DNA of 33,774 bases from Candidatus Woesearchaeota archaeon. GTDB lineage: Archaea > Nanobdellota > Nanobdellia > Woesearchaeales > UBA10200. Positions 6,217 to 29,200 of the stretch are shown in pieces. Under the pieces are notes generated by a model. That model was not told where the DNA came from and did not search any database. It saw only the letters and a list, made by a program, of their open reading frames with translations. The stretch lies in contig DUGA01000048.1 in the NCBI GenBank assembly GCA_013331615.1, forward strand, positions 1-33,774, given 5' to 3'. Position 1 is the first letter of the stretch. Each line of letters begins with the position of its first letter. A program made the position numbers and the translations under genes.

Positions 6217-7482
6217 ATGGCAAAAATAATCGGCTTAAAGGGATTAAGGCCTAGAGATAATGACGCAGTAACAAAGCTTACTGTCCCACCCTATGATGTT
6301 ATTAGGAAAGGAAGCAGATTAGAGGAATTGCTGCAGCAAAGGCAAGATTCTTTATGGCATGTCACGCTTGGAGAGAATCCACGCTCTGCATTAGAAAGAT
6401 TAGCAAGAGAAGGTATTTTAGTTGAGGACAATGAACCTTGCGCTTATATATATGTGCAGGAATATGTTGACTTGTGGGGAAATACACAACAAAGGATAGG
6501 GATTCTCGATTCGCCTGAAGTAACACCTTATGAAGCCGGACAGGTGATAAGGCATGAGCAGACTTTTGATGATAAAGTAAAGGGAAGACTGGAGCTTACT
6601 AAGCAGCTAGGCTTGACTCTTGAACCTGTTTTCTTGTTGACAAAAGCAAAAATAACTGATTTATTGAGAGAATATATAGAAGGTAGTGTGCCCTCGTATG
6701 AATTTGTTTCTGATTTTCAGGGTGAATCTGAGTTGCATAATATGACAACTAAAGTATATAGAATCCCACATAACTCACCATTTATGGAAGTAGTAAAGCA
6801 CTTTATTGCAGAACAACCGCTCTACATTGCAGATGGTCATCATCGCTATCATGCTGCATTATTAAATGAGCAGAGAAATTGTCTGGCATATATAGTTGAG
6901 GCTGCAGAGATAGAGAGGACAGAAGGAATCCAGGCATATAATCGTGTAATTAATGGTATGGTCCCATTTGCTGATGCATTAGATGCAATTGCTAGAATTC
7001 AAGGAATCAGGGTGAAGGAAGCACCTGCGCTGGATGGACCAGTTACTTTGCAAAAAAGAGAATTCTGTGTCTATTCAGGCGGCAAGGTATATATTATAGA
7101 TACAACAGGCTTACCAGCAACTGATGATGTTGTAGAGAGACTGGACTGCAAAACGCTTGAAAGAGTAATTTATCCAGTATTAGGACTTGATGATTCAATG
7201 CTCGCAGATCCCAGGCATTTTGATTATTATCCTCAACAAGATAACCAAAGGATGAAGGAATTAGTGGATTCTGATAGATATAACTTGGCAGTTGCATTAC
7301 ACCAAGTGTCAGTAGATGAAGTGATAGCTGTAGCAGATGCAGGCTTGGCAGACTTAAGGTGTCGCGGCCAAGAAGCATTAACTGTTCCTAGATTTATAAT
7401 GCCAAGAAAATCAACATTCTTTGCACCAAAGATATTATCTGGATTATTTGTGTTAAGGCATGAAATGAGATATGCTGCGTAA
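6217..7482 (+). CDS. DUF1015 family protein (COG4198)
   Basis: A 421-residue soluble protein with the full DUF1015 signature: an N-terminal GLKGLRP...VPPYDVI, HEQTFDDKVKGRLEL near 113-127, and the family's strongest motif ADGHHRY at 205-211. Length is normal for the family. The biochemical role in this organism cannot be read from sequence; the family has been linked to small-molecule (serine-type) kinases, which I treat only as a possibility. I chose ATG 6217 because it sits 26 bases from a TATA box and begins like other members (MAKI...LRP); TTG 6211 would add two residues. Neighbours are separate transcription units, each with its own TATA box, so no operon partner informs the function. 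Confidence 0.9.
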   Translation: MAKIIGLKGLRPRDNDAVTKLTVPPYDVIRKGSRLEELLQQRQDSLWHVTLGENPRSALERLAREGILVEDNEPCAYIYVQEYVDLWGNTQQRIGILDSPEVTPYEAGQVIRHEQTFDDKVKGRLELTKQLGLTLEPVFLLTKAKITDLLREYIEGSVPSYEFVSDFQGESELHNMTTKVYRIPHNSPFMEVVKHFIAEQPLYIADGHHRYHAALLNEQRNCLAYIVEAAEIERTEGIQAYNRVINGMVPFADALDAIARIQGIRVKEAPALDGPVTLQKREFCVYSGGKVYIIDTTGLPATDDVVERLDCKTLERVIYPVLGLDDSMLADPRHFDYYPQQDNQRMKELVDSDRYNLAVALHQVSVDEVIAVADAGLADLRCRGQEALTVPRFIMPRKSTFFAPKILSGLFVLRHEMRYAA

Positions 7483-7580: not shown

Positions 7581-8747
7581 ATGGTAATAGCATTAACGCA
7601 GGCAAAGCCTGAAAAGAAATCTGCATACCAGTCAGGGCATGATGGTGATGAGCCGATTCTTGATTTGAATAATATCTATGTTTATAGACCTGAATCTCCT
7701 TCAGGCGGTAGGCTGCATGGCATCGATGCAAAGATACAATATATTATGGATACATATGGAGAAAATGCAAAATTTATAATCAGAAAGATAATTAGGATAG
7801 GCATCAGGGCAGAAGTTATCCCGGAAAAAGCTATGCTAAGGGAAGATTATATTGAAGGGCTTCAGGAGTTTGTTGACAGTGAATGCGGAAATATTGCAGA
7901 AGATTTTGATTCAAATCTTGGAAAATTTCTTGAGGGAGAAGGGCAGCTGGCTTTCATACTAGGATATAGGATGCTGCCATTGGAAATCAGGAAACAGAAC
8001 TTGCCGGATAATAGATTTAGTGAGTCTAAATATGACAGTAGTCAAACAGGATATGATAGTGCAGGGTTAGGAGAGGAAGATGAATCATTAGATGACCGCC
8101 TGGATGAGCAGCATCATGGCAAATTAGATAAAAAGCCAGATGTGCAGCAAGTGCTTGCAGACCTTCATACCAAGCCTAAGACTCCTGCAGACCTGATAGA
8201 CAGCTATGTACTTGGGTTTGCTGTAGGAATTGCAAAGGATTTTGGCATATCTCTGAAGATGACTGAATTACCCATAGACCTTGAGACATACAATGATTTT
8301 ATGACAGGGTATAATGCGATCCCTGTTAATCTTCAAAATGATTCAAGCAGTGGTCAGACACGGGTTAATGAAACGATCTATTTAGCAGGATTAAAAGTTT
8401 GGTTAAATGAGCAGGGATTAGGAGCTATAGAGTCACGTTATCTGCGAAATCCAAATGCGCTAGCAGGATTTATAGCTGCATTGGAAGGCGTAGAAGTTGA
8501 AGAATTTGAGAAGCATTTGACAGAAACAATGTTCAATTCAAGAGTAAGGATGGCATCAAGGCAATCATTGGCAGAATGTGATATCTTTCTTGATAACGAA
8601 TCTTATAAAGCTTGGCCATCTTCTGAGACTGAAAGAGATGCTGCTTTGCGTGGTTATAAGTTAGGGAAGATCGCTAAAGTGAGAATGGCTAAAGCAAATG
8701 AAGCAGTAAGTAATATGAGCAGAGACAGATCTGTAATCATAATGTAA
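7581..8747 (+). CDS. Unrecognised cytoplasmic protein, 388 residues
   Basis: The open frame begins 28-29 bases after a TATA box centre with no SD, so it is likely a leaderless gene. There is no signal peptide or transmembrane helix. Residues about 20-135 look globular and helical (GIDAKIQYIMDTYGENAKFIIRKI type segments). Residues about 145-195 form a charged Asp/Glu/Ser/His-rich linker (DSAGLGEEDESLDDRLDEQHHGK). Residues about 200-388 are helical again. I see no catalytic motif, metal site or nucleotide-binding loop that I can name. Codon use and composition match the neighbours, so there is no sign of recent transfer. Its own promoter and stop isolate it from proS and DUF1015, so context gives no function. 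Confidence 0.75.
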   Translation: MVIALTQAKPEKKSAYQSGHDGDEPILDLNNIYVYRPESPSGGRLHGIDAKIQYIMDTYGENAKFIIRKIIRIGIRAEVIPEKAMLREDYIEGLQEFVDSECGNIAEDFDSNLGKFLEGEGQLAFILGYRMLPLEIRKQNLPDNRFSESKYDSSQTGYDSAGLGEEDESLDDRLDEQHHGKLDKKPDVQQVLADLHTKPKTPADLIDSYVLGFAVGIAKDFGISLKMTELPIDLETYNDFMTGYNAIPVNLQNDSSSGQTRVNETIYLAGLKVWLNEQGLGAIESRYLRNPNALAGFIAALEGVEVEEFEKHLTETMFNSRVRMASRQSLAECDIFLDNESYKAWPSSETERDAALRGYKLGKIAKVRMAKANEAVSNMSRDRSVIIM

Positions 8748-8804
8748 TTTTCACCCTAACTAGATCATGAATTCACTATTCTAAAATAGCAAAAAGGCGA
8801 AACA

Positions 8805-10458: not shown

Positions 10459-11967
10459 ATGGCAGGAGAATCTGGTACTACTAAAGTTCTAACTGGAAAA
10501 GGTGAAAGGCCGCAGTTTATATATGGGATAGGGGAAGAATATGAGGGGTTTCAAGAAACCACCGAAGAAAGAGAATTTGTATGGGGATTAGCTGATTCTT
10601 TTGCAAAATCTGGTGCACTGCAGTTAGGAAGTGGCAATAACCAGTATAGTAAACTGGAACAAACATTATTTCCTACATGGAGAGAAGCTAATTTTGTCGG
10701 CGGCGGATTGATTTATCTTCCAGGAAATCCTAATCTAGATGTTGATATAAGTGTAACACTTGGTGGGCCTTTAGTAGAAGAGCCAGTTGTTCTTAATAGA
10801 CCTATTTGGAGAGGAGGCATTAGCTATGGCTCAACTTCAGACCCATTCCATATAGTACAAGCAACAGCAGAGAACAGGCTAGGCATGCCTTACAATGGCG
10901 GAGAAGGAGGATTAGTAAAACGAATTGAAGAAATAACTGAAAAGATTATTGTTCAATATGCAAGCGGCAGAGCAGGAGTTTCTGCAGGATATTTAACCAC
11001 CGATGGGAAAAGGACAAAGATAATTGAAATCAAGATGGGTCAGGGTGCTAAACCAAGCAAAGGTGGACAGCTAACTGGACAAAAAGTATTTCCATTTATT
11101 GCAGATCTGCGTTTTGTAAAACCTTGGCAGGATTTTTATTCTCCTGCGCATCCTATAGATGTTTCAAGTGTTGAAGATCTAAAAGCGATGATTTTAAAAT
11201 TAAGAGAAGCAACCAGATATCAATCAGTTATAGGTGTTAAGATAGGACCAAATGATATTATGGCAGATGTGATAACTGCTGCAGTTGCTTTAGATGGAGA
11301 TGGATATATAGAAGTTGCAGGCGCAGGCGGCGGTACAGCTGCTGCAACTAAGAATTCTATGCAAAACTTTGGTGTACCAACTATATATGCGGTTGCTGAA
11401 GCTAGATGGGCTTTAGACCAGCTAATATCATTAGATACTAAATATAAGAATATAAAATTAGGAGTAAGTGGCGGCTTAGGATTCGAACTAGGAGATGTTC
11501 AGAAAGCAATATTTGCAGGAGCCGACTTTGTAACATTAGGCAAAGCATTTATGATTGCTGCAGGTTGCATTGACTGCAATGAACCATGTTATACAGGCGA
11601 ATGCCCGACAGGCACAACATCACATGAACAGTCAAAGCATGAGAGAAATTATACACCGCCTCAATTAGAGATGCATATTGCAAGAGTGATGAATTATTCT
11701 AACGCTCAGGCAGCAATATTAAGAGACATATTGAGATCATATAATAGGCCATCATTATTCACCAGAACTGGAGAAAGAAATATAGGTCCACAAGATTTAA
11801 TCGCACTAACAGAAAGAGCAAGTTTGGCATTAGGGATTCCTTATGGCACACCTAATGGTCCTAATTTTAGAAATATAGCTTTACAAGAGATGAAAGGCCA
11901 GAGAGAGTTTCCATCTTCATTTAGAAAGAGTATAGCAGATTTGTTATACCAGATTAAGGGGAATTAA
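10459..11967 (+). CDS. Glutamate-synthase-like FMN-binding domain protein
   Basis: A 502-residue stand-alone version of the central/FMN domain of glutamate synthase large subunits (COG0069). In the family this TIM barrel uses FMN and a [3Fe-4S] cluster to reduce 2-iminoglutarate to glutamate. Visible: NGGEGG (about 147-152), SGRAGVSAGYL and QGAKPSKGGQL, the barrel strand GYIEVAGAGGGTAAA near 284-298, a phosphate-binding ADFVTLGKA segment, and a cysteine set C370, C373, C377, C382. The classical spacing is C-x5-C-x4-C; here it is C-x2-C-x3-C-x4-C, with one extra cysteine, so the cluster type may differ. The amidotransferase/GXGXG gene starts 60 bases downstream with its own SD, so the two are probably one complex. 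An N-methylglutamate-synthase-like (MgsC/GlxD) role is an alternative. Confidence 0.88.
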   Translation: MAGESGTTKVLTGKGERPQFIYGIGEEYEGFQETTEEREFVWGLADSFAKSGALQLGSGNNQYSKLEQTLFPTWREANFVGGGLIYLPGNPNLDVDISVTLGGPLVEEPVVLNRPIWRGGISYGSTSDPFHIVQATAENRLGMPYNGGEGGLVKRIEEITEKIIVQYASGRAGVSAGYLTTDGKRTKIIEIKMGQGAKPSKGGQLTGQKVFPFIADLRFVKPWQDFYSPAHPIDVSSVEDLKAMILKLREATRYQSVIGVKIGPNDIMADVITAAVALDGDGYIEVAGAGGGTAAATKNSMQNFGVPTIYAVAEARWALDQLISLDTKYKNIKLGVSGGLGFELGDVQKAIFAGADFVTLGKAFMIAAGCIDCNEPCYTGECPTGTTSHEQSKHERNYTPPQLEMHIARVMNYSNAQAAILRDILRSYNRPSLFTRTGERNIGPQDLIALTERASLALGIPYGTPNGPNFRNIALQEMKGQREFPSSFRKSIADLLYQIKGN

Positions 11968-12014
11968 TTAAAATGGAAATGAGACTTTAAGTAAGATAAT
12001 AAATATTAATTATA

Positions 12015-12020
12015 GAGGAG
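12015..12020 (+). promoter_or_regulatory. Shine-Dalgarno of the amidotransferase-GXGXG gene
   Basis: GAGGAG lies seven bases before ATG 12028. It places Cys2, the predicted nucleophile, directly after the initiator Met and supports operon translation. Confidence 0.6.
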
Positions 12021-12027
12021 ACTAATT

Positions 12028-14760
12028 ATGTGCAGAATGTTTGCATTGATGAGAGGAGAAAACTTGGATGGCTCATTAGGTGTAAGGTTAGCGTTAGCGT
12101 TTCCTCCTCAACAGACTTTTGGCCCGCATGCCGTTGCATTAGGCATATATGGTCATCAAAGAAAAAATAGCAGAACTGAATTTAATCCAGATGATTGGTA
12201 TACATTTAACGTATTGTTTCCTGAGGATCTTGAAAAAAGAGTAATAGGGGTGTTTGCAGATAATAATGTTAAACTTGACTCTTCTAATGGTCAGGTCAGA
12301 ATAAAATCTTTGAATTCAGATTTTGTAAATAGGGCATTTAGGTTAACACAACCATTGGATGCAGAAACATTAGATGAGGTAGTAGCTCAAATAAATAGTC
12401 TGGAAAATGGGCAGGGTCAACGAGCTTTTTCGCAGGCATATGGTCCAGATGTTATTGTAGTTAAAGATACTGTTTCTGCGCAAAAATTTTTTGCTGCGCA
12501 TAAAGGCGAGCATTGGGAAGGAGATATGGGTGGGTATCATTTAAGATATGCTACTAAGGAAGCGCTTGATGATCCTCAGAACGCACACTGGTTTCCTGTT
12601 GCCTGGATGGACAAAGAGGGGAATTATAACCATATGATTGTCATGGCTAATGGTCAGCTTACAAATGATAGGGCGTTAAGGCAATTTGTTGATAAATACA
12701 GAGCAACATATTTAAAAGGAAGAGAACATTTATTTTTACAGCGAGTCACAAATGTTGATACAAACTTACAGGGCCTTGTATTAGGAATTTATCTTAGAGA
12801 GCAAATTTCAAAATATGGTTATGATGTAGGTATAGATCGAGCAATGTCAATAGCAGCTTCTTTATTTGATGGTCCTTATACACTTGTTGCTATGGGTAGA
12901 GTAAATAATGAAAGAGTTCTAGCTGCAATCACTAGCAAGAAGAATAACAGGCCGTTATATATTGGACTTCCACCTGGTTCAGATTCAGTTGCAATATCCT
13001 CAAGTGAAGATGCATTGATTAGGGCATTTCCTGAGGGAGTTAACGTAGAATATCTTCCAGATAATTCGTTTGAAGTTTGGAGCAAGCCTGATATTCGTGT
13101 ATTTGAGCCAAACTATGGCAAATGGGTAATGCAAAACGGAATATCTTTGCCAGAGAGATTTGTAATAAAAGAAAATTCTAAGGACAAGAGATATACTAGA
13201 TGGACACAAGACGGTGATACTTTAAGAGTCGGGATGGGCTTATTAAGAATAATTGGTATTGCAAATGAGGCTATTACATCAGAGCAATTAAGAGATTATG
13301 AAACAGAAAGAGGCTTTACTAAAGCACGAAAAGAAGAATTTATCCCTATACCTGAGATAGAAGCATATTATGATGACATAAGTGATAGGGTACAGGAGTT
13401 ATTTGGGGTAAGACCATTAAGAAAACAAATAATGCTGGCAAAGGAATATGGTGCATCTGCAGATATTGCACCATTAGGCTGCGGAATAGTTAATCATTTA
13501 ATAGATAAGCTAGGGAGAGACCAAGCACTAAAAACCCTTGAGCTGCACGGTGTTGAAGCTTCATGGAATATTGGGGCAGGAAGAGCTAGTGGCGAATATT
13601 ATGGGGAACACTTTGATTTTGCAGGAAAGAGTGTAGTAGTTTATGGAAGCGGAGGAACTTATTTTGCAAATGAGACTGACGATATCAGATATATAGTAAG
13701 GCAATTTATGACAGAAGATGGCAGAAAAGTTGAAGGTAATGTAGGAGAGCATGCAGGCTTAAGCATGGGTCCAAATGCAGCATTAATTGTTGAAGGTGAT
13801 GCTGCCCAGAATGCATTTGCTAATTCTAGGGGGTTAGGTTATATAATGGGAAAAGCAGGCCCTAGATTTGGAAAAGCATTAAAAAAAAGCGGAGTAGCTG
13901 TTGTAGGTGAAACTTGCGGTATAGATAGTTTTGAATGGATGAATGCAGGCATAGGTATAGTAGGATGGCAGGTTAATCAACAAGACCCATATAGGTTTAA
14001 GGCAGAAGGTTTAGCAACAGGAAATGTTGGCGGCATAGTGTACTTTGGCGGCGGCTTAGAAGAGCTAGGTGATATGGGAGATAAGGTTAGCATATTTAGA
14101 TTGAATAATGATGATCGCACACTTATAGGACGAGTGATGCAAAAACTAGAGATAGATGAAGGAGAGTTAGGCAAGCTAGATAATTATGTTAAACTATTGC
14201 CAAGATATATTAATCTACAAAACCCTGTCAGAGTTGCAGAAGAAAAGAATAAAGCAATTCCAAGAATAATCACTATTAAATTATATGGTGATGAATTGTT
14301 TGAAGAATATGGCAAATTTGATCCAGATAGGCAAGCATTATCCCCAGAAAGAATATTTTACGATGAAGAAAGAGTTGTTGAGAGACATCTAAAGTTCACT
14401 GAGCTGGAGAAAGCTTTGCTTGACGGAAAAACAAACCCAGGAGAAGAGATACTTAACCCGCAGGAAAAAGATTTGTTTAGAAGAAGATATGTTAAGAACT
14501 ATAGCATAGGAGAACTTGCAACACACTTTAAAGCTTCTAGAGATATAGTATGTGCAAAACTTGATGAATTAACATTAAGAATCAACAATGCGATTCGTGG
14601 TGCACATGGATTAACAGAGAAATTTGGAATAAATGATACCATGACCTTATTTGATAATTACAGAATGATGAATGAGGGAATAATTTTATCGAGAGATAAG
14701 AATGATAAGCCTAAAGTGGTGTATAAGTTAGCTGTAGAAACAACTACAGTTGCAGCATAA
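12028..14760 (+). CDS. Class II glutamine amidotransferase + GXGXG fusion with C-terminal helix-turn-helix
   Basis: A 910-residue fusion. Residues 2 to about 350 are a class II (Ntn) amidotransferase: Cys2 (MCRMFALM), GGYHLRYAT, NGQLTNDRALR, LFDGPYTLVAMG and ISSSEDALI match the glutamine-hydrolysing domain. Residues about 480-690 fit the GXGXG beta-helix of glutamate synthase (VEGDAAQNAFANSRG, GKAGPRFGKALKKSG, GETCGIDSFEWMNAGIGIV). In large-subunit GOGAT these flank the FMN domain; here the FMN domain is the separate upstream gene, so the order is rearranged. Residues 809-857 (LNPQEKDLFRRRYV...SIGELATHFKASRD...) look like a sigma-70 region-4/LuxR-type helix-turn-helix, not normal for this family. 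No GltD-like NADPH subunit is in view. Likely role: ammonia release and channelling for glutamate or methylglutamate synthesis; the HTH role is unknown. Confidence 0.85.
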   Translation: MCRMFALMRGENLDGSLGVRLALAFPPQQTFGPHAVALGIYGHQRKNSRTEFNPDDWYTFNVLFPEDLEKRVIGVFADNNVKLDSSNGQVRIKSLNSDFVNRAFRLTQPLDAETLDEVVAQINSLENGQGQRAFSQAYGPDVIVVKDTVSAQKFFAAHKGEHWEGDMGGYHLRYATKEALDDPQNAHWFPVAWMDKEGNYNHMIVMANGQLTNDRALRQFVDKYRATYLKGREHLFLQRVTNVDTNLQGLVLGIYLREQISKYGYDVGIDRAMSIAASLFDGPYTLVAMGRVNNERVLAAITSKKNNRPLYIGLPPGSDSVAISSSEDALIRAFPEGVNVEYLPDNSFEVWSKPDIRVFEPNYGKWVMQNGISLPERFVIKENSKDKRYTRWTQDGDTLRVGMGLLRIIGIANEAITSEQLRDYETERGFTKARKEEFIPIPEIEAYYDDISDRVQELFGVRPLRKQIMLAKEYGASADIAPLGCGIVNHLIDKLGRDQALKTLELHGVEASWNIGAGRASGEYYGEHFDFAGKSVVVYGSGGTYFANETDDIRYIVRQFMTEDGRKVEGNVGEHAGLSMGPNAALIVEGDAAQNAFANSRGLGYIMGKAGPRFGKALKKSGVAVVGETCGIDSFEWMNAGIGIVGWQVNQQDPYRFKAEGLATGNVGGIVYFGGGLEELGDMGDKVSIFRLNNDDRTLIGRVMQKLEIDEGELGKLDNYVKLLPRYINLQNPVRVAEEKNKAIPRIITIKLYGDELFEEYGKFDPDRQALSPERIFYDEERVVERHLKFTELEKALLDGKTNPGEEILNPQEKDLFRRRYVKNYSIGELATHFKASRDIVCAKLDELTLRINNAIRGAHGLTEKFGINDTMTLFDNYRMMNEGIILSRDKNDKPKVVYKLAVETTTVAA

Positions 14761-15564: not shown

Positions 15565-17004
15565 ATAGCAAAGAAAAAAACACAATCAGAGGAAACTGTA
15601 GCAGTTGAAAAGGCTGAGCTTAATGGTAGTGAGAATAGCCAAGATAACAATGCTAATAAAGTTAATAACATAGCTGATCAAAAAAATAAACAAGAAAATA
15701 AAAATAATGCTGCTTCTGAGGTAAGCAGTTCTGGTATTGACGTTGAAAATTCTCAGCCAGAAGTCAATATAGGCATGGTTGGGCATGTTGACCATGGAAA
15801 AACTACATTGACAGAAAAGCTTTCTGGCAAATGGACAGATACGCATAGTGAAGAGATTAAGAGGGGAATCACAATCAGATTAGGGTATGCAGATACTGTA
15901 ATCTATATATGCAAAAATTGTGCTTCTGCAGCTAATGATAATGAAGGTAGTGTTCAAACTGAATTCTACGGTGTCAAAAAGACTTGCGCAAAATGCAACT
16001 CACCTGCAACACCATTGAGAAAAATAAGCATAGTAGATGCCCCTGGGCATGAAAGTTTGATGGCAACCATGCTGTCTGGCAGCACTATAATGGATGGTGC
16101 ATTATTGCTTGTTGCAGTAAACGAAGAATGCCCGCAGCCACAGACAAGAGAGCATATAATGGCATTGCAGATTGCAGGCATAAAAAATATTGTCATAGTG
16201 CAGAATAAGATCGATCTTGTGAGCGATGAAGATGCACTTGCAAATTATAATGCTATCAGAGAGTTCTTAAAAGATACGCAGTATGCAAATGCTCCTATCA
16301 TACCTTTATCTGCTGCGCATAATGTGAATGTAGATGCATTGGCAGAAGCTATCCAGACATTTATCCCAACGCCAAAAAGAAACCAAGACTTAGATCCTAT
16401 CATGTTTATTGCAAGAAGCTTTGATATCAATAAGCCAGGAATTTTGCCAGAAAATATGCTGGGCGGAGTTTTAGGCGGTTCTGTCAAGCAGGGGACTTTC
16501 AAAGTTGGTGATAAGATAGAGATTGCTCCAGGTAGGATGTTTGAAGAAAAGAACCAGAAGATCTGGAGACCTTTAAAAACAACAATCACTGCATTAAAGA
16601 CAGGCGGCCAAGATGTGCAGGAAATTTATCCTGGCGGCTCAATCGCAATTATGACAGGATTAGATCCTGCAATTGTAAAATCTGACAGCTTATCTGGAAA
16701 TGTTGTAAGTTTGCCTGGCAAGCTTCCTCCTATCTGGACAGAGTTTAATCTGGAAGTCCATCTGCTTGAAAGAGTAGTAGGCGCAAAAGAAGATCTTGTT
16801 GTTGAGCCAGTAAAGATGCTAGAACCGTTAATGTTGAATGTAAATACTGCTGCTACAGTTGGTGTTGTGTCTGAGCTTCGCAAAAAATTAGTTAAATGCA
16901 AACTAAAGCTAGCTGTCTGCGCAAATTTGGGAGAGAGAGTCACTATTTCCAGAAGGATAGATAACAGGTTTAGACTGATAGGCTATGGATTGATAGTGAA
17001 GTGA
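15565..17004 (+). CDS. eif2g: Translation initiation factor aIF2, gamma subunit
   Basis: GTPase that carries initiator Met-tRNA to the small ribosomal subunit with aIF2 alpha and beta. Landmarks: G1 GHVDHGKTT, switch-1 region EIKRGITIRLGYAD, a zinc knuckle with two CxxC pairs (CKNC...CAKC), G3 DAPGHE, G4 NKID, G5-type LSAAHN, then domains 2 and 3 ending GYGLIVK. The first in-frame ATG (15775) would remove strand beta-1 (PEVNIG), so it cannot be the true start. No ATG, GTG or TTG exists in frame between the TAA at 15553-15555 and 15775. The SD at 15554-15560 points to ATA 15565 (reads AKKKTQSEE next), giving 479 residues with a roughly 65-residue Asn/Glu/Lys-rich extension absent from most aIF2 gamma. 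Start and extension are inferred; the identity is firm. Confidence 0.93.
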   Translation: MAKKKTQSEETVAVEKAELNGSENSQDNNANKVNNIADQKNKQENKNNAASEVSSSGIDVENSQPEVNIGMVGHVDHGKTTLTEKLSGKWTDTHSEEIKRGITIRLGYADTVIYICKNCASAANDNEGSVQTEFYGVKKTCAKCNSPATPLRKISIVDAPGHESLMATMLSGSTIMDGALLLVAVNEECPQPQTREHIMALQIAGIKNIVIVQNKIDLVSDEDALANYNAIREFLKDTQYANAPIIPLSAAHNVNVDALAEAIQTFIPTPKRNQDLDPIMFIARSFDINKPGILPENMLGGVLGGSVKQGTFKVGDKIEIAPGRMFEEKNQKIWRPLKTTITALKTGGQDVQEIYPGGSIAIMTGLDPAIVKSDSLSGNVVSLPGKLPPIWTEFNLEVHLLERVVGAKEDLVVEPVKMLEPLMLNVNTAATVGVVSELRKKLVKCKLKLAVCANLGERVTISRRIDNRFRLIGYGLIVK

Positions 17005-17032: not shown

Positions 17033-17040
17033 TTTAGAAT
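17033..17040 (+). promoter_or_regulatory. Weak TATA-like box before the 196-nt element
   Basis: TTTAGAAT is centred about 27 bases before 17063, the first base of the closing helix. The position fits a promoter but the sequence is only TATA-like. Confidence 0.3.
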
Positions 17041-17062
17041 TCTCGAGTTGCCTTAATCAATT

Positions 17063-17258
17063 AAAAGTGACGGCAGCTTGCGAGCACTTGCCTAGAACAT
17101 CGAAGAGTTACTCCTCCTCTAAGTTTAGTTGCTAAAGGTGGTACTAGAAGAGTATTGCGTGTTGTGATAGTTGAGGTGTAATTAGTTTGCATTGCCCGTC
17201 GTAACTTGACATGGATAAATAGATTTGTGCTTGCAAAAAATTAGCTGCCGTCACTTTT
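17063..17258 (+). ncRNA. Candidate structured RNA (or MITE-like element) closed by a 25-bp helix
   Basis: The 289-bp spacer between the convergent aIF2 gamma and protease genes has no credible frame. AAAAGTGACGGCAGCT (17063-17078) is the exact reverse complement of 17243-17258. The next nine bases 17079-17087 pair with 17227-17235 including one G-U, leaving a 7-nt 3' bulge. Inside, 17105-17111 pairs with 17201-17207, 17098-17100 with 17211-17213, and 17138-17145 forms a hairpin with 17151-17158 using three G-U pairs. The G-U pairs would be mismatches on the other strand, so the plus strand is the likely RNA. It ends in five T. RNase P, SRP and 5S hallmarks are absent. TTA flanks both ends, so a small inverted-repeat element is the alternative. 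Confidence 0.5.
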
Positions 17259-17293
17259 TATGTGACTTAGGTGTTTAGAATTATCTTTCTTTA

Positions 17294-20200
17294 TTAGGTC
17301 AAGATTATAGTGGCTGATTCTATCGTTCCGTAGTCTTTGTTGTCATAAGGTATAATACTGCATGAGAGATTAGCTCCAATTGGAGGATTGTTTCCAGTGT
17401 TATCTTTATTTAGGTAAAGTGATTTATTGATTACATTATTTTTAGTATGCCAGGTTATGGCTTCTTCATAGACGTTTGCTGCACAGTCTTTCTTAATATC
17501 CCTTCTCTGCCATCTGCCATAATCATTTGTCTGATAGGTGTCCCAGTTACCGTCATATGCCTTATCCTCCTGTTGTATATAGTATCCTGGGCAGAAATAA
17601 AATCTGCCTGAGTTAGCGTTTCTCTGTCCTATGTCCTGCCATTCACCATCATAACATTGAGGATAGGAGAGAGAGATGCTCTGCCTGTCAACTCTCTTTG
17701 ATTCTGCATAAATCCTGAGCTTTAACTTATCTGTATTATAATTATCTGCATTATCGATAGTATCATTATAATCAAAGCATGATTGAGGTATCCTAATCTC
17801 ATATGCTTCTAAGCCACCATGCTTGACTTTCCAGACAGCAGAATCTGCTTCACTTGGCTTGATATAATCCATGTAAAAATAATTGCCTTCGATCAGATAG
17901 GTGTCTGCAGATTCCTGATAGATATTATAGCCGACTGGAACTTCAACATTATCAACATACCATTTTAGTGTAGAGCGGTCAGCATCACGGTCTGCATCAT
18001 GATAATCATAGGTGCATGATATAAGGTCAGTGTAACGAGAGCTTGCAGTCAATTCAACATCTGTAACACTAGGAAGCCTGTTCTTGTCTTGCACATTTAT
18101 TGCCCAGGAGATGGTTGAGGAAAATTCACCATCACTTACAACTGAAGTTATCTGATGCTGGCCTGCACTTTCATACCCATAATATTTAGTGAGAGCAGCA
18201 GGGTTAGTTGCAGAGTTAGCATCAGAGTTTATGCCTTCAGAGCTTTCATCAATTAATATATTGTCTGAATACCAGGAATATGTCAGGTTATCTCCGTCAG
18301 TATCAGAGTATTCTATGTTGAATGCGACAAAGGAATCTTCATCGACATTTATGTCTATAGATGAAGGCATCCGTGTTTGGAGTATAGGTGGGTGGTTTAT
18401 TCTTGCAGGAGGTTCTGGCATAGGAGGATTCTCTATCGGTGGATTATCTGCTGGCGGAGCTGGTGGTGTTTCTGGCAGCAAGTCATCTGTCTCATTCATT
18501 GGGTCGGTACTATTGTCAGGATTCGCTGTTATATTACCAGGATTATCTGCAGGAGGTTCTGGCAGTAAAGGTGGTTCAGGTGGTGCAGGAGGCTGTGGTG
18601 ATGCATTAACAGTGACTTTAAATGTTGTACTATCTTCAAATTCACCATCACTTACTGTTATCTTAAAGTTATAGCTTCCAACATCATTGATCTGCGGTGT
18701 CCATGCAAAGAGAGCATAATTTTGTGTAAGAGAATTCTGAGTGAATCTTGAATCATTGATTGTATATATCAACCTATCATCATCAGGATCTGAGGCAGAT
18801 GCATTTATGATGATCTCTGTATTCACTTCAGCTGATAGGTCATTAATTATGCTGAGTGTTGGAGGTGAATTAGGGTTTGGTGTCAAGATTACATTAAATG
18901 GCATCGTGGAAAATACATTGCCGTCACTTACAGTAACTAAGAAATTGTATGTTCCTTGATCACTTTTGCTTGTGTACCATGAAAATTGGTTATCAGTTTT
19001 GCTGAATCTTGAATCATTGATCGCATAGCTTAATAAATCATTATCTAGATCTGTTGCATTGATGGTTACAAATATCGAATCTCCTGGAATGCGGTTGATA
19101 GGAGAAATAATCTCAATTATGGGCGCTCTATTTGTATTTTCAATAGTTACCTTAATATTTTGGTAAACTTCTAAAGCACCATCGGTTGCAATAATCTTTA
19201 AGTTATAAATTCCTGCATCATCGTAAGAAGTTTGCCATGTGAAAATATTGTTTGATGAACTGTTCTTTACAAATCTGGTGTTGTTAATTGTATAGGTAAT
19301 TGCATCATTATCAGGATCTGTTGCAGATGCAGTTATTGTGGCTAAGGAATTCTCGCTGAGAGTTAGGTCATTGATGGTTGCTAACATAGGAGCCCTGTTC
19401 ACATTATTGACTGTAACCTTAAATGCCTTTGAATCACTCAAATGACCGTCACTTACTGTTATTTGGAGGTTATATGTTCCAGCATCTGTGTAAGTTGTCT
19501 GCCAAGTAAAAACATTTTTGATCATACTGTCCTGGACAAATCTTGTATCATTGATAGAATATTGCAATGCTTCTCCCTCACTATCATCAGCATTTACAGT
19601 TATCACTATCCTTTCATTTTCGTTTATAATCCTATCAGCAATAGGTTCTAAGACTGGCTGAGTATTAGGCAAGGTCAAGTTAGGTGCAGCTGTTTCATTG
19701 CCTGGTGCATTACCGGAATTATTTCTTATCGGCTCAGAAGGAACCGGAGAATCACCTATCACACTTGAATTATCATATCCGTCAGATACAAGTATAACAC
19801 ATGAAACATTTTGCTGAGTGTACATGCTCATATTAATCACATTATTTGTTGTATGCCATGTTATGGATTCTTCATAGATATTTGCTGCGCAAGCTGTTCT
19901 TGTATTACTTCTCTGCCAGCTTCCGAAATCATTTGTTATGTAAGTATCCCAATTGCCATCACTTGCCTTATCTGTGTTCTGCGAAATAAATCCTGCGCAG
20001 GTGTATGATTTTCCTGATACTGTGTTTAGCTCTCCAATGTTTTTCCATCCTCCATCAAAACACTGAGGATAAGATAAAGCTATTCTTTGCCTGTTGATAA
20101 ATGCTGACTGTGAAAATATCCTTAGCTGAAGATTTTTGCTATTATTAAAGCATGATGCAGGAACCTCTATCTCGTAAGGGTTTAAGCCGCCATGCCTGAC

Positions 20201-23200
20201 TTTCCAGACTGCAGCTGATGCTTCAGCAGGCTTGCCATATGTTGCATAAAAGAAATTATCTGCAAATGAATAAGCATCTGCATCTTCTTGATAGACATCA
20301 TAACCAACTTCAACCTCTGCATCATTAACCTGCCATTTAACTTGTGAATAGTCTTTATCACCGTCTGCATCATAGTAATCATAGCTGCAAGATTGCAAGC
20401 CAGGAGAGAGAGTTATTGGCTGTGTTGCTATGTTAGAGATTACAGGCAACCTGTTTTTGTTGGTTATTGCAAGCGACCAATCATTTGTAGCAGCCAAGCT
20501 TCCATCTGTTGCAGTTACTCTTATTGAATATCTTCCTGTGCTATCATAATCATAATATTGCGTAAGTTTTGATGATGTTTCATCGATCAATATGTTGTTG
20601 ATATGCCAGGAATAAGTTAGAGTGTCGCCATCTGGGTCAGTAAACTGAGGTGTAAATTCTATCATATTATCTTCAGATTCTTGATAGTCTGATTGAGGCG
20701 CTGCAGATACAAGCACAGGAGCCCTGTTGATGTTATTTATCGTGAGGGTAGCAGTTTTGCTGACAGATTCTATACCATCTGTTACACTGAATTTAACATT
20801 ATATTGCCCAGAATCTGAGTAAGTTGTCTGCCAAGTGAAGAAGTTCCTGTTTTGGATAAATCTGGAATCATTTGCTGAATAGATAAGCGCATCATTGTCT
20901 GGATCAGTTGCTGCTAATACAATAACTATTTCATCTGCTTCATTTTTCACTATATTGGTGATAGGCTCCAAAGATGGTGCTCTGTTTATGTTGTTGACGG
21001 TAATCTTCAATATTTTTGAATCAGATAAAGTGCCATCAGTTGCAGTTATCTTTATGTTGTAAACTCCTGCATTATCATAGGAAGTTTGCCAAGTGAATAG
21101 GTTATTAGAGTTATCATCTTGTATAAATCTGCTATCATTGATCGAAAAGGTTAAGGTATTGTTGTCAGGATCAGTTGCTAAAGCAATTATTGTGGCTAAT
21201 TGGTTCTCACTAACAGTTAAATCACTGATTTGGTTTAAGACTGGTGCCCTGTTAAAGTTATTGACGCTAACTTTCAATGTCTTTGAATCTGATAAAGTGC
21301 CATCTGTTGCAAAGATTTTTATGTTGTATGTGCCTGCATCATCATAAGAAGTTTGCCATGTGTATCTGTTTTTATTGATGCTGTCTTGGGTAAATCTTGA
21401 GTCATTGATTGAATAAGTTATTGCGTCATTGTCTGGATCAGTTGCACTAGCCGTTATAGTTACCAGTTGATTTTCACTTACTGACAAATCACTTATTGCG
21501 TTTAGTACTGGGGCTCTATTAACATTATTGACTGTGACTTTGAGTGTTTTTGTGTCGCTCAAACTACTGTCGCTTGCAGTGATTTTTAAGTTATATTCTC
21601 CTGCATCTTCATAAGTAAGCTGTCTGGTAAATCTGTTGCTTGAATAAATAAATCTGGAATCATTGATTGTGTAAATGATTGCCTGACCATCTGGATCAGT
21701 TGCGCTCAAGAAAATCTCTGCAAGGTTGCCTTCATCTAAAGTCATGTCTGTGATAGATTGAAGAACTGGTGCCCTGTTTACATTGTTAACAGTGACTTTC
21801 AATGTTTGTGAATCAGATAAAGTGCCGTCTGTTGCAAAGATTTTTATGTTGTAAGTTCCTGCATCATCATATGTTGTCTGCCAGGTGAAGACATTATTTG
21901 CTGAACTGCTCTTTACAAATCTTGTGTCGTTGATTGCATAAGTTATTGCATCATTGTCTGGATCAGTTGCAGCAGCAGTTATTGTAACTAATTGGCTTTC
22001 ATCTACTGCAATATCACTTAATGCAGCTAATGTTGGCTTTCTATTCACGTTGCTAACATTGAGCCTGAATACTTTTGAGTCAGAATCTGTTAAGTCTGTT
22101 GCTGTCAGCTTTAAGTTATAAATTCCTGCATCATTGTAAGAAGTTTGCCATGTGAAAATATTGTTTGCAGAACTACTCTTTACAAATCTGGTATCGTTGA
22201 TCGAATAAGTTAGTTCATCATTGTCTTGGTCAGTTGCAGCAGCAGTTATTGTAACTAATTGGCTTTCATCTACTGCAATATCACTTAACGGAGCTAATAC
22301 TGGATTTCTATTGACGTTTTTAACTGTTAGCATGAATGCCTTTGTATCTGTAGCTGTGCCATCTGTTGCGGTAATTTTTAGGTTGTAAGTTCCTGCATCA
22401 GTGTAAGAAGTTTGCCATCCAAACAGATTATCCTGCTGCGTGAATCTGGAATCATTGATCGAATAAGAGATGCTATCTCCATCCAAATCTGTTGCATGTG
22501 CTGTTATTAGAGCAATTTCAGTCTCGTTTATATTAATGTCAGGAATATTGTCTAGGACTATGGCTCTATTGGCATTATTGATGGTAACTTTGAATGTCTT
22601 TGTGTCAGATAAAGTACCATCTGTTGCTGTTATTTTTATGTTGTAAGTTCCTGCATCATTGTATGTTGTCTGCCAGGTGAAGATATTTTTATTGATGCTG
22701 TCTTGAATAAATCTTGTGTCATTGATTGCATAAGTTATTGCATCATTGTCAGAATCTGCCCTGGTTAAGGTTATTATAACTAAGGAATTCTCGTCTAGAG
22801 CCATGTCATCTATCTCAGTCAGAACTGGCGCCCTGTTAAGGATATTGATTGAATCTTCAACAGGTATGCCCTCAGCTTTGCCATCATTAGGCACTACTTT
22901 ACATGATACATTTGAGTTTGGTGAGAGAAGATCCGGGGTTAGCAAGATACTGCCTTTCTTCCATGTTATGGCTTCTTCATATATATTTGCTGCACAGCTA
23001 GCTTTAGGGTTTCGCCTCTCCCAAATACCTAAGACATTCGTGATATAAGTGGTCCAACTTCCATCATATGCCTTATTTGAATCTAGAGTAAAGTAACTTG
23101 AAGTGCAGTTAGAATAACCGTCATCAGCCGAACTCCTCTTCCCTATAGTAATCCAATCTCTGCCAGTATAACATTCAGGATACGAGCTAGCTATTTTTGA

Positions 23201-26200
23201 TACTGTAAAGTTTGAATAGATCCTTAATTGCAATGTATCACTGGAATCAAAACATGCTTGAGGCAGTTGTATATCATATGTTGCCAATCCGCCATGTTTT
23301 ACCTTCCATGAAGCAGAATCTGCCTCTGGATGCTTTGCATAATTGACATACATATAATTTCCTTCGAAAGAATATTCTTCTGCAGCTTCCTGATAAATCT
23401 CCTTGCCAGATTGGACATGATTCTCATTTACATACCAGTTGACTGTTGATAAATCAATGTCGCCATCAGCATCGGTAAACTGATATAGGCATGTTAAGGT
23501 ATCATTGCTGTATACTATTTCTGGAGAAATGCTGACAGAATTTACGCTAGGAAGCCTGTTTGTATCGGAAACATAAACAGTAAATGTTTTTGTATCTGAT
23601 AATGATCCGTCATTTACAGTAACTGCTAGATTATACGTGCCTTTACTGTTATAATCAGTCTGCCATGTGAATATATTAGTTGTGCCAACATTTTTTGTAA
23701 ATCTGCCATCGTTGATAGAGTAGGTTAAGAAATCTCCGTCTGGATCAGCTGCAGATGCTGTTATAGTCACTAATTCAGCCTCATTGACAGAAATGTCACT
23801 GATTGCTGCTAAAACAGGAGCTCTGTTGAGATTATTAACAGTGACTTTGAATGTCTTTGTGTCAGATAAAGTACCGTCTGTCGCTGTTATTTTTACAGTA
23901 TATGTTCCAGAGTCTGTGTAAGTGGTCTGCCAAGTGAAGATGTTTTTGTTAAGGATATCTTGGACAAATCTACTATCGTTGATCGAATAAGTTAGTTCAT
24001 CATTGTCTGGGTCAGTTGCACTAGCTGTTATACTTACTAATTCATTCTCATTGACATAACTATCGCTGATTGCTGCTAACACAGGAGCTCTGTTGAGATT
24101 ATTAACAGTGACTTTGAATGTCTTTGAGTCAGATGATGTGCCATCTGTTGCAGTTATCTTTATGTTGTAAACTCCTGCATCATCATATCCTGGCGTCCAT
24201 GTGAAGATGTTTTTGTTTATAATATCTTGGGTAAATCTGGTGTCGTTGATTGTGTAAGTTAGAGCATCATTGTCCGAATCTGTTGCACTTGCGGTTATTG
24301 TGGCAAGTTGATTTTCATTCACAAGTAAATCACTGATTGTGTTTAGCACTGGCGCTCTGTTGACATTATTAACAGTAACTTTGAATGTCTTTGAGTCACT
24401 CAGACTCCCATCGGAAACTGTTATTAAGAGATTATAAATGCCTGCGTCTACATAACTTGTCTGCCAGGTGAATTTATTTTTGTTAACATTATCTTGGACA
24501 AATCTACTGTCGTTTATTGCATAAGTTAGGGCATCATTATCCGCGTCTGTTGCAGATGCAGTTATTATGATTAAGGAATTCTCGCTAAATGTTGCATCTG
24601 CTATTATATCTAATGCAGGCTTTCTGTTTATATTATTAACTGTAACTTTGAATGTTTTTGAATCACTTAAGTTGCCGTCGGTAACAGTAACATTTAGATT
24701 ATAAGTTCCCATGCTAGTATAATCAGTTTGCCAGGTAAATATATTATTTGTTTGTGTAAATCTGCTATCGTTAATTGTATAAGTTATTGCATCATTATCT
24801 TGATCTGTTGCAGATGCAGTTATTGTGACTAATTGATTTTCATCTATATTAATATCACTTAATGCAGCTAATGTCGGCTTTCTATTGACGTTGCTAACAC
24901 TGAGCCTGAATACTTTTGAGTCAGAGCTTGTTCCGTCTGTTGCAGTTATCTTTATGTTGTATACTCCTGAATCTGAATATGTTGTCAACCATCCAAACAG
25001 ATTATCCTGCTGCGTGAATCTTGTATCATTGACCGAATAAGTGATGCTATCTCCGTCTAGATCAGTTGCAATTGCAGTTATAAGCGCAACTTCAGTCTCG
25101 TTTATATCTAGGTCAGGAAGATTATTTAATGCAGGAGCCCTATTTACATTATTGACTGTTATCTTGACTATCTTTGAATCAGAGGACTCACCATCGCTTG
25201 CAGTTACATTTACAAAGTATATTCCTGCGTCTGAATAGGTAGTTTGCCAGGTGAAGACATTGTTTGCATCATCACTATCGTTAAATCTGGTGTCGTTGAT
25301 CGAATAGTTTAGAATATCTCCGTCAGGATCTAAGGCAACTGCAGTTATGATTACAAGATTATCCTCATCTACAGTTATGTCATTGATTGCATTAAGGATA
25401 GGGGGGTTATTTGGAATAAACTCTTTATAGGTTAAGTATTCAACTGCATTGGTAATCAATCTTCTGCTGGATTCATCATTATCAATGCTATTTACAGAGA
25501 ATGCAAAATAGAGAAGGTTTGTTGTACCATTTTTGAAGCTGAGTATGGCAGAGTTTGAGTTATTCCACTGTGCAAGGCTAGTGCTGTTTCCAATAGGGAT
25601 TACAGAATCAGGATAAGAACCGCGTGATTTATTAAATTTTAATTCAGGTATGTCTTTGAATATTGTGTGATTTGAGAGATTTAATGTCAGATTATTTTCA
25701 ATTGCAATATCACTATCAAAAACAGCATGCAAGTAATTAGCTAAGAAATCATCTTTTTTATGGTCAAATGCAATATCAGCTCCTTCAAACAAGATATTTC
25801 CAGTATAATTATATAATAACTCAGTATCATTATTGTTTATTACTCCATCCCAATAACTTCCTGCACTCCATATGACAAGATCATAACCGTCCAGATTAGC
25901 AAGGGAAGGTGTTCCTTTTTCATTCTCTTTCCATGTTGTAGTGCAATAGCCTGATTCTTTCAAAACAGAATCAATTTTTTCAAGACTGCTGGAATAATTG
26001 GTTAGACTCTCAGAAGCATCACTATCTTCCACTATAAACACTTTTGATTTATTGCAAAGATACAATTTAGAGCTTAGCAGATTATTAGAATAATCGGATT
26101 CTATTATTTGATGATTCTGATTTACAACAACTGTTACATTAAATATCTCATTGATGTTTTTATCTACTTGAAGATATGAATTTGTTACAGCGCTTTTTCC

Positions 26201-29200
26201 AGCTTCCAAAGAGACGGCACTGCTACCGATGAGATTATTGTTAGCATAGAGATCCACTATTGCATTGTCTGCATTAGCGCCGCCTATATTGCTAATGTTT
26301 ACAGTAAATGTAATATTAGCAGGGTTAATCTGCCAGTTTAAATAACTAGGAATCAGATCTGCCTCAACTGTTGCCACACTTACGTCAAATGCCTTAAGAT
26401 TATTTAAGTAATCATTTTCAACGAGATTAAAGTCATCATTTAATACTATTTTTATAACGTGTTTTCCCGCTGCTAAGTTAAGGCTGACAGGCACTATCTT
26501 CTCATCATTATGCGCAACATCTATATTTAATGATTGAACAACAATATCATCAACAAGTATGTCCACTTTAGCATTGGTTGCATCTAGTTGCCCATTATTG
26601 CCTAAGATGATATTAATTGCATTAGATCCTTGGATAAGATAACCATAATTAATATCTTTTACAGATAAATCTGCATTATTGTTGCTTGTAAACAACCAGT
26701 TCATCATATTTTGCATCATTGCATAAAAAATTACAGGATCTAATTCAGATAAGCTAAATCCAAAAGTCACAACCTTAGATCTATCAGAATTATATGCCAC
26801 TATTGAAGATGCTGCATCATTCCATTTGCCCAATTCTCTTGCACCATCCATCGGAGCCAGTGAAGTGCCAGAAGCATCAAGCATTATCTGATCTAGCTGC
26901 AAGCCTTTAAAGAGGGGATGAGGATAAGTGCCAATAATTTGACCTGTATTATTTTCATCAAACTCTAATTTCTTATCAAAATTGGCTTTAGTTACCTTAG
27001 TAAAATTATCATTAAACCTGTTATCGTAAACAATATTAGAGCCTTCTACAACTAAGTTTCCTCCTGCTCCAAGGTATTCCAATAATAATCCAGAATCTGA
27101 TTCTGAAAGAGGCGTGTTCGCACGAGTTCCTGTGCTTAATATTGCAGCAGTAAACTTATTAAGATAACCTAGACTAGGCATATCTGACTTTAATTTATTC
27201 CAAGAGGAGACACAGTAATTGCCAGCTAAGCCGTCACTAAATAATGTGGTGTAATTTCCTAACTCAGTAGATATGATCAATACACCTGGCTTTGAGCAAT
27301 CATTGACTCTAAAGCTAGCAGTATTAGATGTTGCACAAAGATTAGTACTGTCACATACATCAAAATTGAAGGTATAATCTCCTGTTTTTGATGTATCTTC
27401 ATATGTTGCGACCAATGTTAAAGCACCACCATACTTTGTAAATTGTTTTGCAGGCAAATCATGGGTTATGCCATCAGTATCTCTTAGATGCAATAATGCA
27501 GTTACATTACTTAGCTCATATACTTCAACTTCTATTAATGCAGGATCGTTTTTATTTAGGCTGTTTTTAAAAGTGATATCGCCTATGACTGGATCTGCCT
27601 GGTCTATGAGATAGAAAGTCTTTTCTTTTATCAGCGAATAACCGTCATAAGTAGCAATAATCCGTATCTGTTTCTCGCCTAAATCTGCATCAGCAGTCCA
27701 GTTAAACTCTATCACAAGCCCAGATTGCGGATCAACTGTATTATTCTGCTTATTGATAGACGCAACCATCAGATTATTATCTAGAATCTGCGCTTCAGTC
27801 ATCACATTAATGGCTGAATTGCCGTCATTCTTTAATATTGCCTGTAAGGTCAATGTGCCATTATGTGGAATATGCTGCGGAATTATAATCTGGTCAACAT
27901 AGCCCTCTTTTGAGTTGAATTTGAACACATCAAATGATTTTTCAACTGTAAAAATTCTGCCATATCTATCAGTGATAGAAATAGTCATTGTATATAAGCC
28001 AATTTCATCTGTCTCTTGATAAATCGCCTTCCACGAATTAGAAGAGATGCTAGTGTAATCAACATTTGTTTTTTGCTGTGAAGGCTTGGCAACAACCATA
28101 GAAATATTAGAGATATCACTTGAGCTGGTGTTGACAAATACTTGTACATCACTATGCAAGTATACTATTTCTGGATATGTGATATTATAATCTTTCTTAG
28201 TATCCAGATAAGCTGAGAATAAATCTGCAACATTAACTATTCCTGAGCCATATTTAATATCTTTGCCAGGATCACCTTTAGGAGCAGCAGTGGCTTCAAG
28301 CAAACTCTTAACTTCTCTAGGGGTTAAGCTTTTGTTCATCTGCAGCAATAAAGCAACTACCCCAGAAACATGCGGAGTAGCCATGCTGGTCCCATCAGCT
28401 TTATAATATATGTTGTCTACAATATTAGAGCCAGGTATATACCCACGTTGACCCAGATACATATCAGTCCCAGCTGCTCTTGCTGCAACAATATTTACTC
28501 CAGGAGCCACAACATCTGGCTTAATATAAGACCCATAATTATATCCGCTTGAGAATATTGCCCAGTTATTTGATTTGTCTACTGCACCAACTGTTATCGC
28601 TTCTTCAGTATTCGCAGGAGAAACTGCTACATTATATCCTGCATTGCCAGAGGCAATAACTACAGTAACATTATTTGCAATAGCATCTCTTACTGCATCA
28701 TTTAATAGGCCGTCTTCATTAATAGTTTTTCCAAGACTCATAGAGATTACATTTGCACCTGAATTTACTGCCCAATTAATCGCTGCAATTATCCATTCAT
28801 CATCAGCATTATGATTACCAAATACTTTTGCTGCTAAAATCTCAGCTTCTGGAGCAACTCCCCTATAGCGAGTACCATTTCCTGCAATTGTTCCTGCAAC
28901 ATGAGTACCATGACCGCCTGTATCTGTAGCGATTGAATCACTGTCACCATCACCATTTTCAATGCCATCATAGCCAATAGATGTTGGCGGTACAAAATCA
29001 TTTTCAGCTATAACTCTTCCACGAAGATCCAAATGATTCTTATCAACTCCTGAATCAATAACAGCTACTTTTATTCCTTTGCCTGTATAATTTAATTGCC
29101 ATGCAGAAGGAGCACTTATCTGAGGAACACTCTGGTCTAGCAACAGATGGTATTCTGTTACAGGCCAGACGCTATCAATACTTTGATCTTGAGATATGCT

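What the first reader, a model, noticed from the sequence alone, without database searches (positions are those of the whole stretch)
17063..17258. Undescribed 196-nt structured element: new archaeal RNA or MITE
Perfect 16-bp arms plus nine more pairs close a region with at least three internal helices. Plus-strand G-U pairs favour an RNA. A weak TATA-like box sits about 27 bases before its first base and five T end it. I see no RNase P, SRP, tRNA or 5S signature. TTA on both sides also fits a small inverted-repeat insertion.
Basis: partly seen in the sequence, partly recalled or inferred. Interest (0 to 1): 0.72.

Follow-up and report, generated by a model that had tools for sequence, protein, structure and literature searches.

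The report
Archaeal mini-transposon with swapped ends
The hairpin-rich 196 bases are the inside of a 232-bp non-coding jumping element, one of dozens to over a hundred copies per genome in a genus of tiny archaea (Woesearchaeota), and unusually the same conserved middle is carried under the ends of several different transposon types.

Summary
The structure is real, but it is a mobile DNA element and most likely not an RNA gene. The full insertion is 17042-17273, flanked by a 9-bp direct repeat TTTAGAATT. A covariance model finds 43, 67 and 109 copies in three genomes of the genus, and almost nothing in 353 genomes of the order or 371 drawn from the phylum. Sister genomes have empty sites at orthologous loci. 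23 copies have exact 8-bp target duplications at near-perfect terminal repeats, mostly of three types (GTATTTGTTTAGCT, GTATGTGCATAG, GTATGTATTAAGCT). IS66-family transposons elsewhere in the order carry the same ends. This is a MITE family mobilised in trans, at least partly by IS66 transposases. The window copy belongs to another end class (about TTCGAGTCGCC, 9-bp duplication) whose transposase I did not find. The arms covary strongly, but G-U and A-C mismatches are equally frequent (109 vs 129), so pairing is probably kept at the DNA level. The unexplained part is a conserved core (37 columns at 94% identity, variable columns at 45%) shared by all end classes. No report of MITEs in DPANN archaea turned up in the papers searched.

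The parts
17033..17041 (.). left copy of the target duplication, TTTAGAATT (9 bp)
   Evidence: exact repeat at 17274-17282; other class A copies also show 9-bp repeats
17042..17273 (+). whole MITE insertion, 232 bp, end class A
   Evidence: bounded by the direct repeat; family members align to it
17042..17052 (+). left end CTCGAGTTGCC, class A (consensus about TTCGAGTCGCC)
   Evidence: shared with other class A copies and with small elements L309, L310
17260..17273 (-). right end, decayed class A terminal repeat (CACCTAAGTCACAT on the minus strand)
   Evidence: position next to the right duplication; only partly matches the left end (by inspection)
17063..17078 (+). P1a left arm
   Evidence: pairs perfectly with 17243-17258
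17243..17258 (+). P1a right arm
   Evidence: P1a columns are among the top covarying pairs
17079..17087 (+). P1b left strand TGCGAGCAC
   Evidence: pairs with 17227-17235; changes on both sides at 7 of 9 pairs over 47 copies
17227..17235 (+). P1b right strand GTGCTTGCA
17106..17121 (+). conserved core block 5' (AGTTACTCCTCCTCTA; family AGTTGCTCCTCCTCTA), includes GTTAC 17107-17111 of the core inverted repeat
   Evidence: most columns over 90% conserved in 159 copies; pairs with 17201-17205
17191..17207 (+). conserved core block 3' (ATTGCCCGTCGTAACTT), includes GTAAC 17201-17205
17274..17282 (.). right copy of the target duplication, TTTAGAATT

Best explanation
The element is one copy of a non-autonomous transposable element (MITE) sitting in the gap between two convergent genes. 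Shown: many copies per genome, terminal repeats, target duplications, orthologous empty sites, no coding capacity, and for three end types the same termini on IS66-family transposons of the same order. Inferred: a transposase made elsewhere binds the outer ends, moves the element and duplicates 8 bp (IS66-type ends) or 9 bp (the window's class A ends, transposase unknown). The subterminal arms and the conserved core are cis-acting DNA. The arms stay complementary because palindromes are corrected or exchanged as DNA. The core is kept because only core-bearing copies spread, so it is probably a site used in mobilisation; that last step is a guess.
For: 43, 67 and 109 copies in three congeners. 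Seven orthologous empty sites, two resolved to the base with 8-bp duplications CTTTTTTA and AAAATTAG. 23 copies with duplications at near-perfect terminal repeats, all 8 bp although 9 was allowed. Type B ends 94/13/5 in G002/G001/G000, a lineage-specific burst. Elements with both ends identified: IS66 L307 and L308 (type B) and L298 (type C) with 8-bp duplications; L305, L297, L291, L292 agree at the 3' end; Pfam confirms the IS66 domain in L287 and L307. Window copy: 9-bp repeat TTTAGAATT, and class A repeats in other copies and genomes. No open frame. No G-U excess.
Against: No complete IS66 was found in the three genomes; G000 has one transposase fragment at a contig end and G001/G002 have none, although the assemblies are only 64-76% complete. 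The window copy's own ends are not IS66-like, its right end is decayed, and no clean empty site exists for it because downstream synteny is lost. Most copies (136 of 159) no longer show an exact duplication at matching ends.
Confidence: 0.9

Rival explanations
1. A structured non-coding RNA family that works as RNA and is merely dispersed by transposition.
For: Strong fold; 95.4% of cells paired, 122 double changes, covariation 0.458 against 0.203 in shuffles; a core far more conserved than the rest.
Against: G-U 109 against A-C 129 mismatches in the arms; both strands fold equally well; core does not fold consistently beyond 5 bp; orthologous copies are not vertically kept; no Rfam match.
Confidence: 0.07
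2. A transcription terminator or mRNA 3'-end stabiliser between the two convergent genes.
For: It lies tail-to-tail between 15775-17004 (+) and 17294-29563 (-), with a GC-rich palindrome followed by T5.
Against: Copies are spread over convergent, divergent and co-directional gaps (8, 9 and 32 of 49), and both congeners lack it after the same upstream gene. A local effect of this one copy is not excluded.
Confidence: 0.1
3. An integron attC-like recombination site.
For: Variable but always complementary imperfect palindromes, one strand carrying bulges.
Against: Flanked by 8- or 9-bp target duplications, scattered singly and not in cassette arrays, core repeat oriented GTT...AAC, the reverse of the attC boxes (general knowledge).
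Confidence: 0.01

Closest known systems
IS66-family insertion sequences, single-ORF (ISBst12-like) group
   Same: Ends beginning GTA and 8-bp target duplications (PMC11946415, PMC12898284). MITE types B, C and F share their terminal 13-14 bases with Woesearchaeota IS66 elements.
   Different: No transposase and no similarity inside the ends. The window copy (class A) has other ends and a 9-bp duplication.
Correia elements of Neisseria (MITE)
   Same: About 200 bp, high copy, intergenic, nested inverted repeats; inversion of the element is reported (PMC10969869).
   Different: No sequence relation claimed; here one core occurs under several unrelated end types.
Archaeal MITEs of Sulfolobus (SM1-SM4)
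   Same: Non-autonomous archaeal repeats with 25-44 copies in a genome for the families quoted (PMC10969869).
   Different: Different host lineage; at least 109 copies in G002. Sequences were not compared.

Membership tests
MITE | short, non-coding, multicopy | tested here: met
   220-275 bp where ends are known, 43-109 copies per genome, no conserved frame
MITE | terminal inverted repeats | tested here: met
   Met for types B, C, F; in the window copy the left end is recognisable and the right end decayed
MITE | target-site duplication | tested here: met
   8 bp in 23 copies; window copy 9 bp TTTAGAATT
MITE | empty orthologous sites | tested here: met
   Seven family members; not resolvable for the window copy itself
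MITE | autonomous partner with the same ends | tested here: inconclusive
   Present in other genomes of the order for B, C, F; one 12/14 match in the own genome; none found for class A
IS66-type MITE (window copy) | GTA-starting ends with 8-bp duplication | tested here: not met
   Window copy starts CTCGAGTTGCC and has a 9-bp repeat
structured RNA gene | G-U tolerated over A-C in helices | tested here: not met
   109 against 129 in the arms
structured RNA gene | match to a known RNA family | tested here: not met
   Rfam none, also at E up to 0.1 on six copies
structured RNA gene | defined transcript | not testable with these tools
   no expression data

The most novel reading that the evidence does not exclude
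The conserved core is itself the selfish unit: a roughly 130-bp sequence, acting as DNA hairpin or RNA, captured by ends belonging to at least two unrelated transposase systems (several IS66 lineages with 8-bp duplications and an unidentified one with 9-bp duplications), and actively promoting mobilisation by whichever transposase is present.
Probability: 0.25. Interest if true: 0.7.

Novelty: new variant of a known kind. Interest (0 to 1): 0.43.

Why it matters
It appears to be an undescribed MITE family in DPANN archaea: searches of the held literature found none (the library is partial). It occupies roughly 1-2% of small genomes. MITEs usually keep the ends their transposase needs and let the middle drift; here the middle is the constant part. 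That makes a question testable: what does an internal sequence do for a non-autonomous transposon? It also warns that strong covariation in intergenic regions of assembled genomes can come from DNA palindromes and not from RNA.

Tried and rejected
IS1595 as partner: absent. DDE_Tnp_1: one broken copy with different ends. A class A end search across the order found small core-less class A elements (L309, L310) and one in G256 with a divergent middle (L312), but no transposase. Multicopy proteins in the fetched DNA: none. In-place inversion to explain opposite orientation at two orthologous sites: for C69/C99 the variable parts are as different as random copies, so independent insertion is likelier; C84/C89 remains possible. 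Vertical inheritance at co-occupied sites is mostly rejected: variable columns 0.476 against 0.445 for random pairs, and at C2/C94 the two insertions are adjacent with different duplications. Protein coding: rejected.

Full report
What is there. The inverted repeat, the second helix and the T run are as described, and the fold is far better than shuffles on both strands. ARAGORN and Rfam find nothing. A search of the window's own genome found 28 places, the other 27 mostly 68-83% identical.

Family. I extracted copies from the own genome (G000) and two congeners (G001, G002), aligned 47 and built a covariance model. It finds 43, 67 and 109 copies. By its aIF2-gamma ortholog and a contig of identical length (15,985 bases), G002 matches Ca. 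Woesearchaeota NC_groundwater_258_Ag_S-0.2um_36_8; G001 is probably RIFCSPHIGHO2_02_FULL_37_9 (inference). In 353 genomes of the order only one further genome has copies (G256: two on one contig, possibly mis-binned or transferred, and one weak). In 371 genomes drawn from the phylum only the own genome matched; these wide scans used stricter filters that lose weak matches. Many copies lie at contig ends, so true numbers are probably higher.

Anatomy. From outside in: target duplication; terminal repeat; subterminal arms P1a and P1b with a 3'-side A-rich bulge; a conserved core bounded by AGTTGCTCCTCCTCTA and ATTGCCCGTCGCAACTT, whose GTTGC/GCAAC form an inverted repeat. Outer ends and inner arms come in linked types (B-B-B 28 copies, C-C-C 28, with a few hybrids), yet the core is common to all. 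In 159 copies, 37 columns average 94% pairwise identity while 80 variable columns average 45%.

Mobility. At seven orthologous sites a sister genome is empty. Two comparisons are clean to the base: an insertion with ends GTATGTATTAA/TTAATACATA duplicated CTTTTTTA, and one with ends GTATTTGTTTAG/CTAAACAAATAC duplicated AAAATTAG. Of 159 copies, 23 retain duplications supported by matching ends, all of 8 bp although 9 was also allowed. Type B ends are far more frequent in G002 (94) than in G001 (13) or G000 (5), which points to a recent burst. Where both sisters carry an element between the same genes, the copies are about as different as random copies, and in one resolved case (G001 C2/G002 C94) the duplications differ; these are mostly independent insertions into the same short gaps.

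Helper. IS66 transposase matches occur in 40 of 353 genomes of the order. Elements with both ends found carry MITE-type termini and 8-bp duplications: L307 and L308 type B, L298 type C; L305 (B), L297 (C), L291 and L292 (F-like) agree at their 3' ends. Beyond the ends there is no similarity to the MITE core. The own genome has one IS66 transposase fragment at a contig end whose flank GTACTTATTAAGCT matches type F in 12 of 14 bases. Published IS66 insertions show 8-bp repeats and GTA-starting ends (PMC11946415, PMC12898284).

The window copy. It is class A: left end CTCGAGTTGCC, right end decayed, flanked by TTTAGAATT (17033-17041, 17274-17282). Two other class A copies also show 9-bp repeats (TATAGAATT; ATTCTTTAC/ATTCTTCAC) (by inspection). 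Small class A elements without this core occur in other genomes, e.g. L310 with TCATTTACT on both sides. Their transposase is unknown. The upstream gene's orthologs in G001 and G002 are not followed by the element, but downstream synteny is lost, so no clean empty site exists for this copy.

RNA or DNA? Compensatory change is strong, but it does not single out RNA. If RNA pairing were selected, G-U mismatches should exceed A-C on the transcribed strand. In the arms the counts are 109 and 129; the core helix is too invariant to decide. Correction of DNA palindromes or exchange between copies fits (inference). No conserved reading frame exists.

Judgement. MITE membership is secure for the family and likely for this copy. 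IS66 as the helper is well supported for types B, C and F and not met for the window's class A. The role of the core is open; my best guess is a cis-acting mobilisation site. It is a new MITE family with an unusual constant middle, not a demonstrated new RNA class.

Noticed in passing
L069:334-520; G002 C61 about 22083-22328; G001 C45:1490-1717; G001 C59 about 8565-8800; G002 C23 from 4066: Elements with the same outer ends but other, unrelated hairpin-rich middles (e.g. GAACTTGCC...GGCAAGTTC), so several core families share these ends.
   Followed up: partly
L045, L067 (G001 C141), G001 C129, G001 C121, G002 C80:14231: A subfamily carries the same roughly 40-nt hairpin insertion (ACTCATTTCATTCGTAGGTTTGGAGACGTAACTCCAAAC) at one core position in all three genomes.
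   Followed up: partly
G001:C64 about 6811-6948 (L186): An element truncated exactly at its core GTTGC abuts a tRNA-like sequence that ends at the same base.
   Followed up: no
G002:C72 about 11491-11546 (L135): The 3' half of an element continues the open frame of an upstream gene, so it may have become its C-terminus.
   Followed up: no
L034 (G000 C89) and L064 (G002 C84): Same gene neighbourhood, element in opposite orientation, and copies more alike than random; possible in-place inversion.
   Followed up: partly
G208 C1, C28, C32, C41; G237 C27, C49, C59: Several places encode only the last 30-45 residues of an IS66 transposase, suggesting IS66-derived miniature elements in other Woesearchaeota.
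   Followed up: no
17294-29563 (-): A 4089-aa predicted secreted protein with a subtilisin-like start and many near-identical repeats (family by eye only).
   Followed up: no
10459-14760 (+): A glutamate-synthase-domain protein (PF01645, E 9.6e-71) followed by a 910-aa protein without Pfam match that begins like a glutamine amidotransferase (second part by eye).
   Followed up: no
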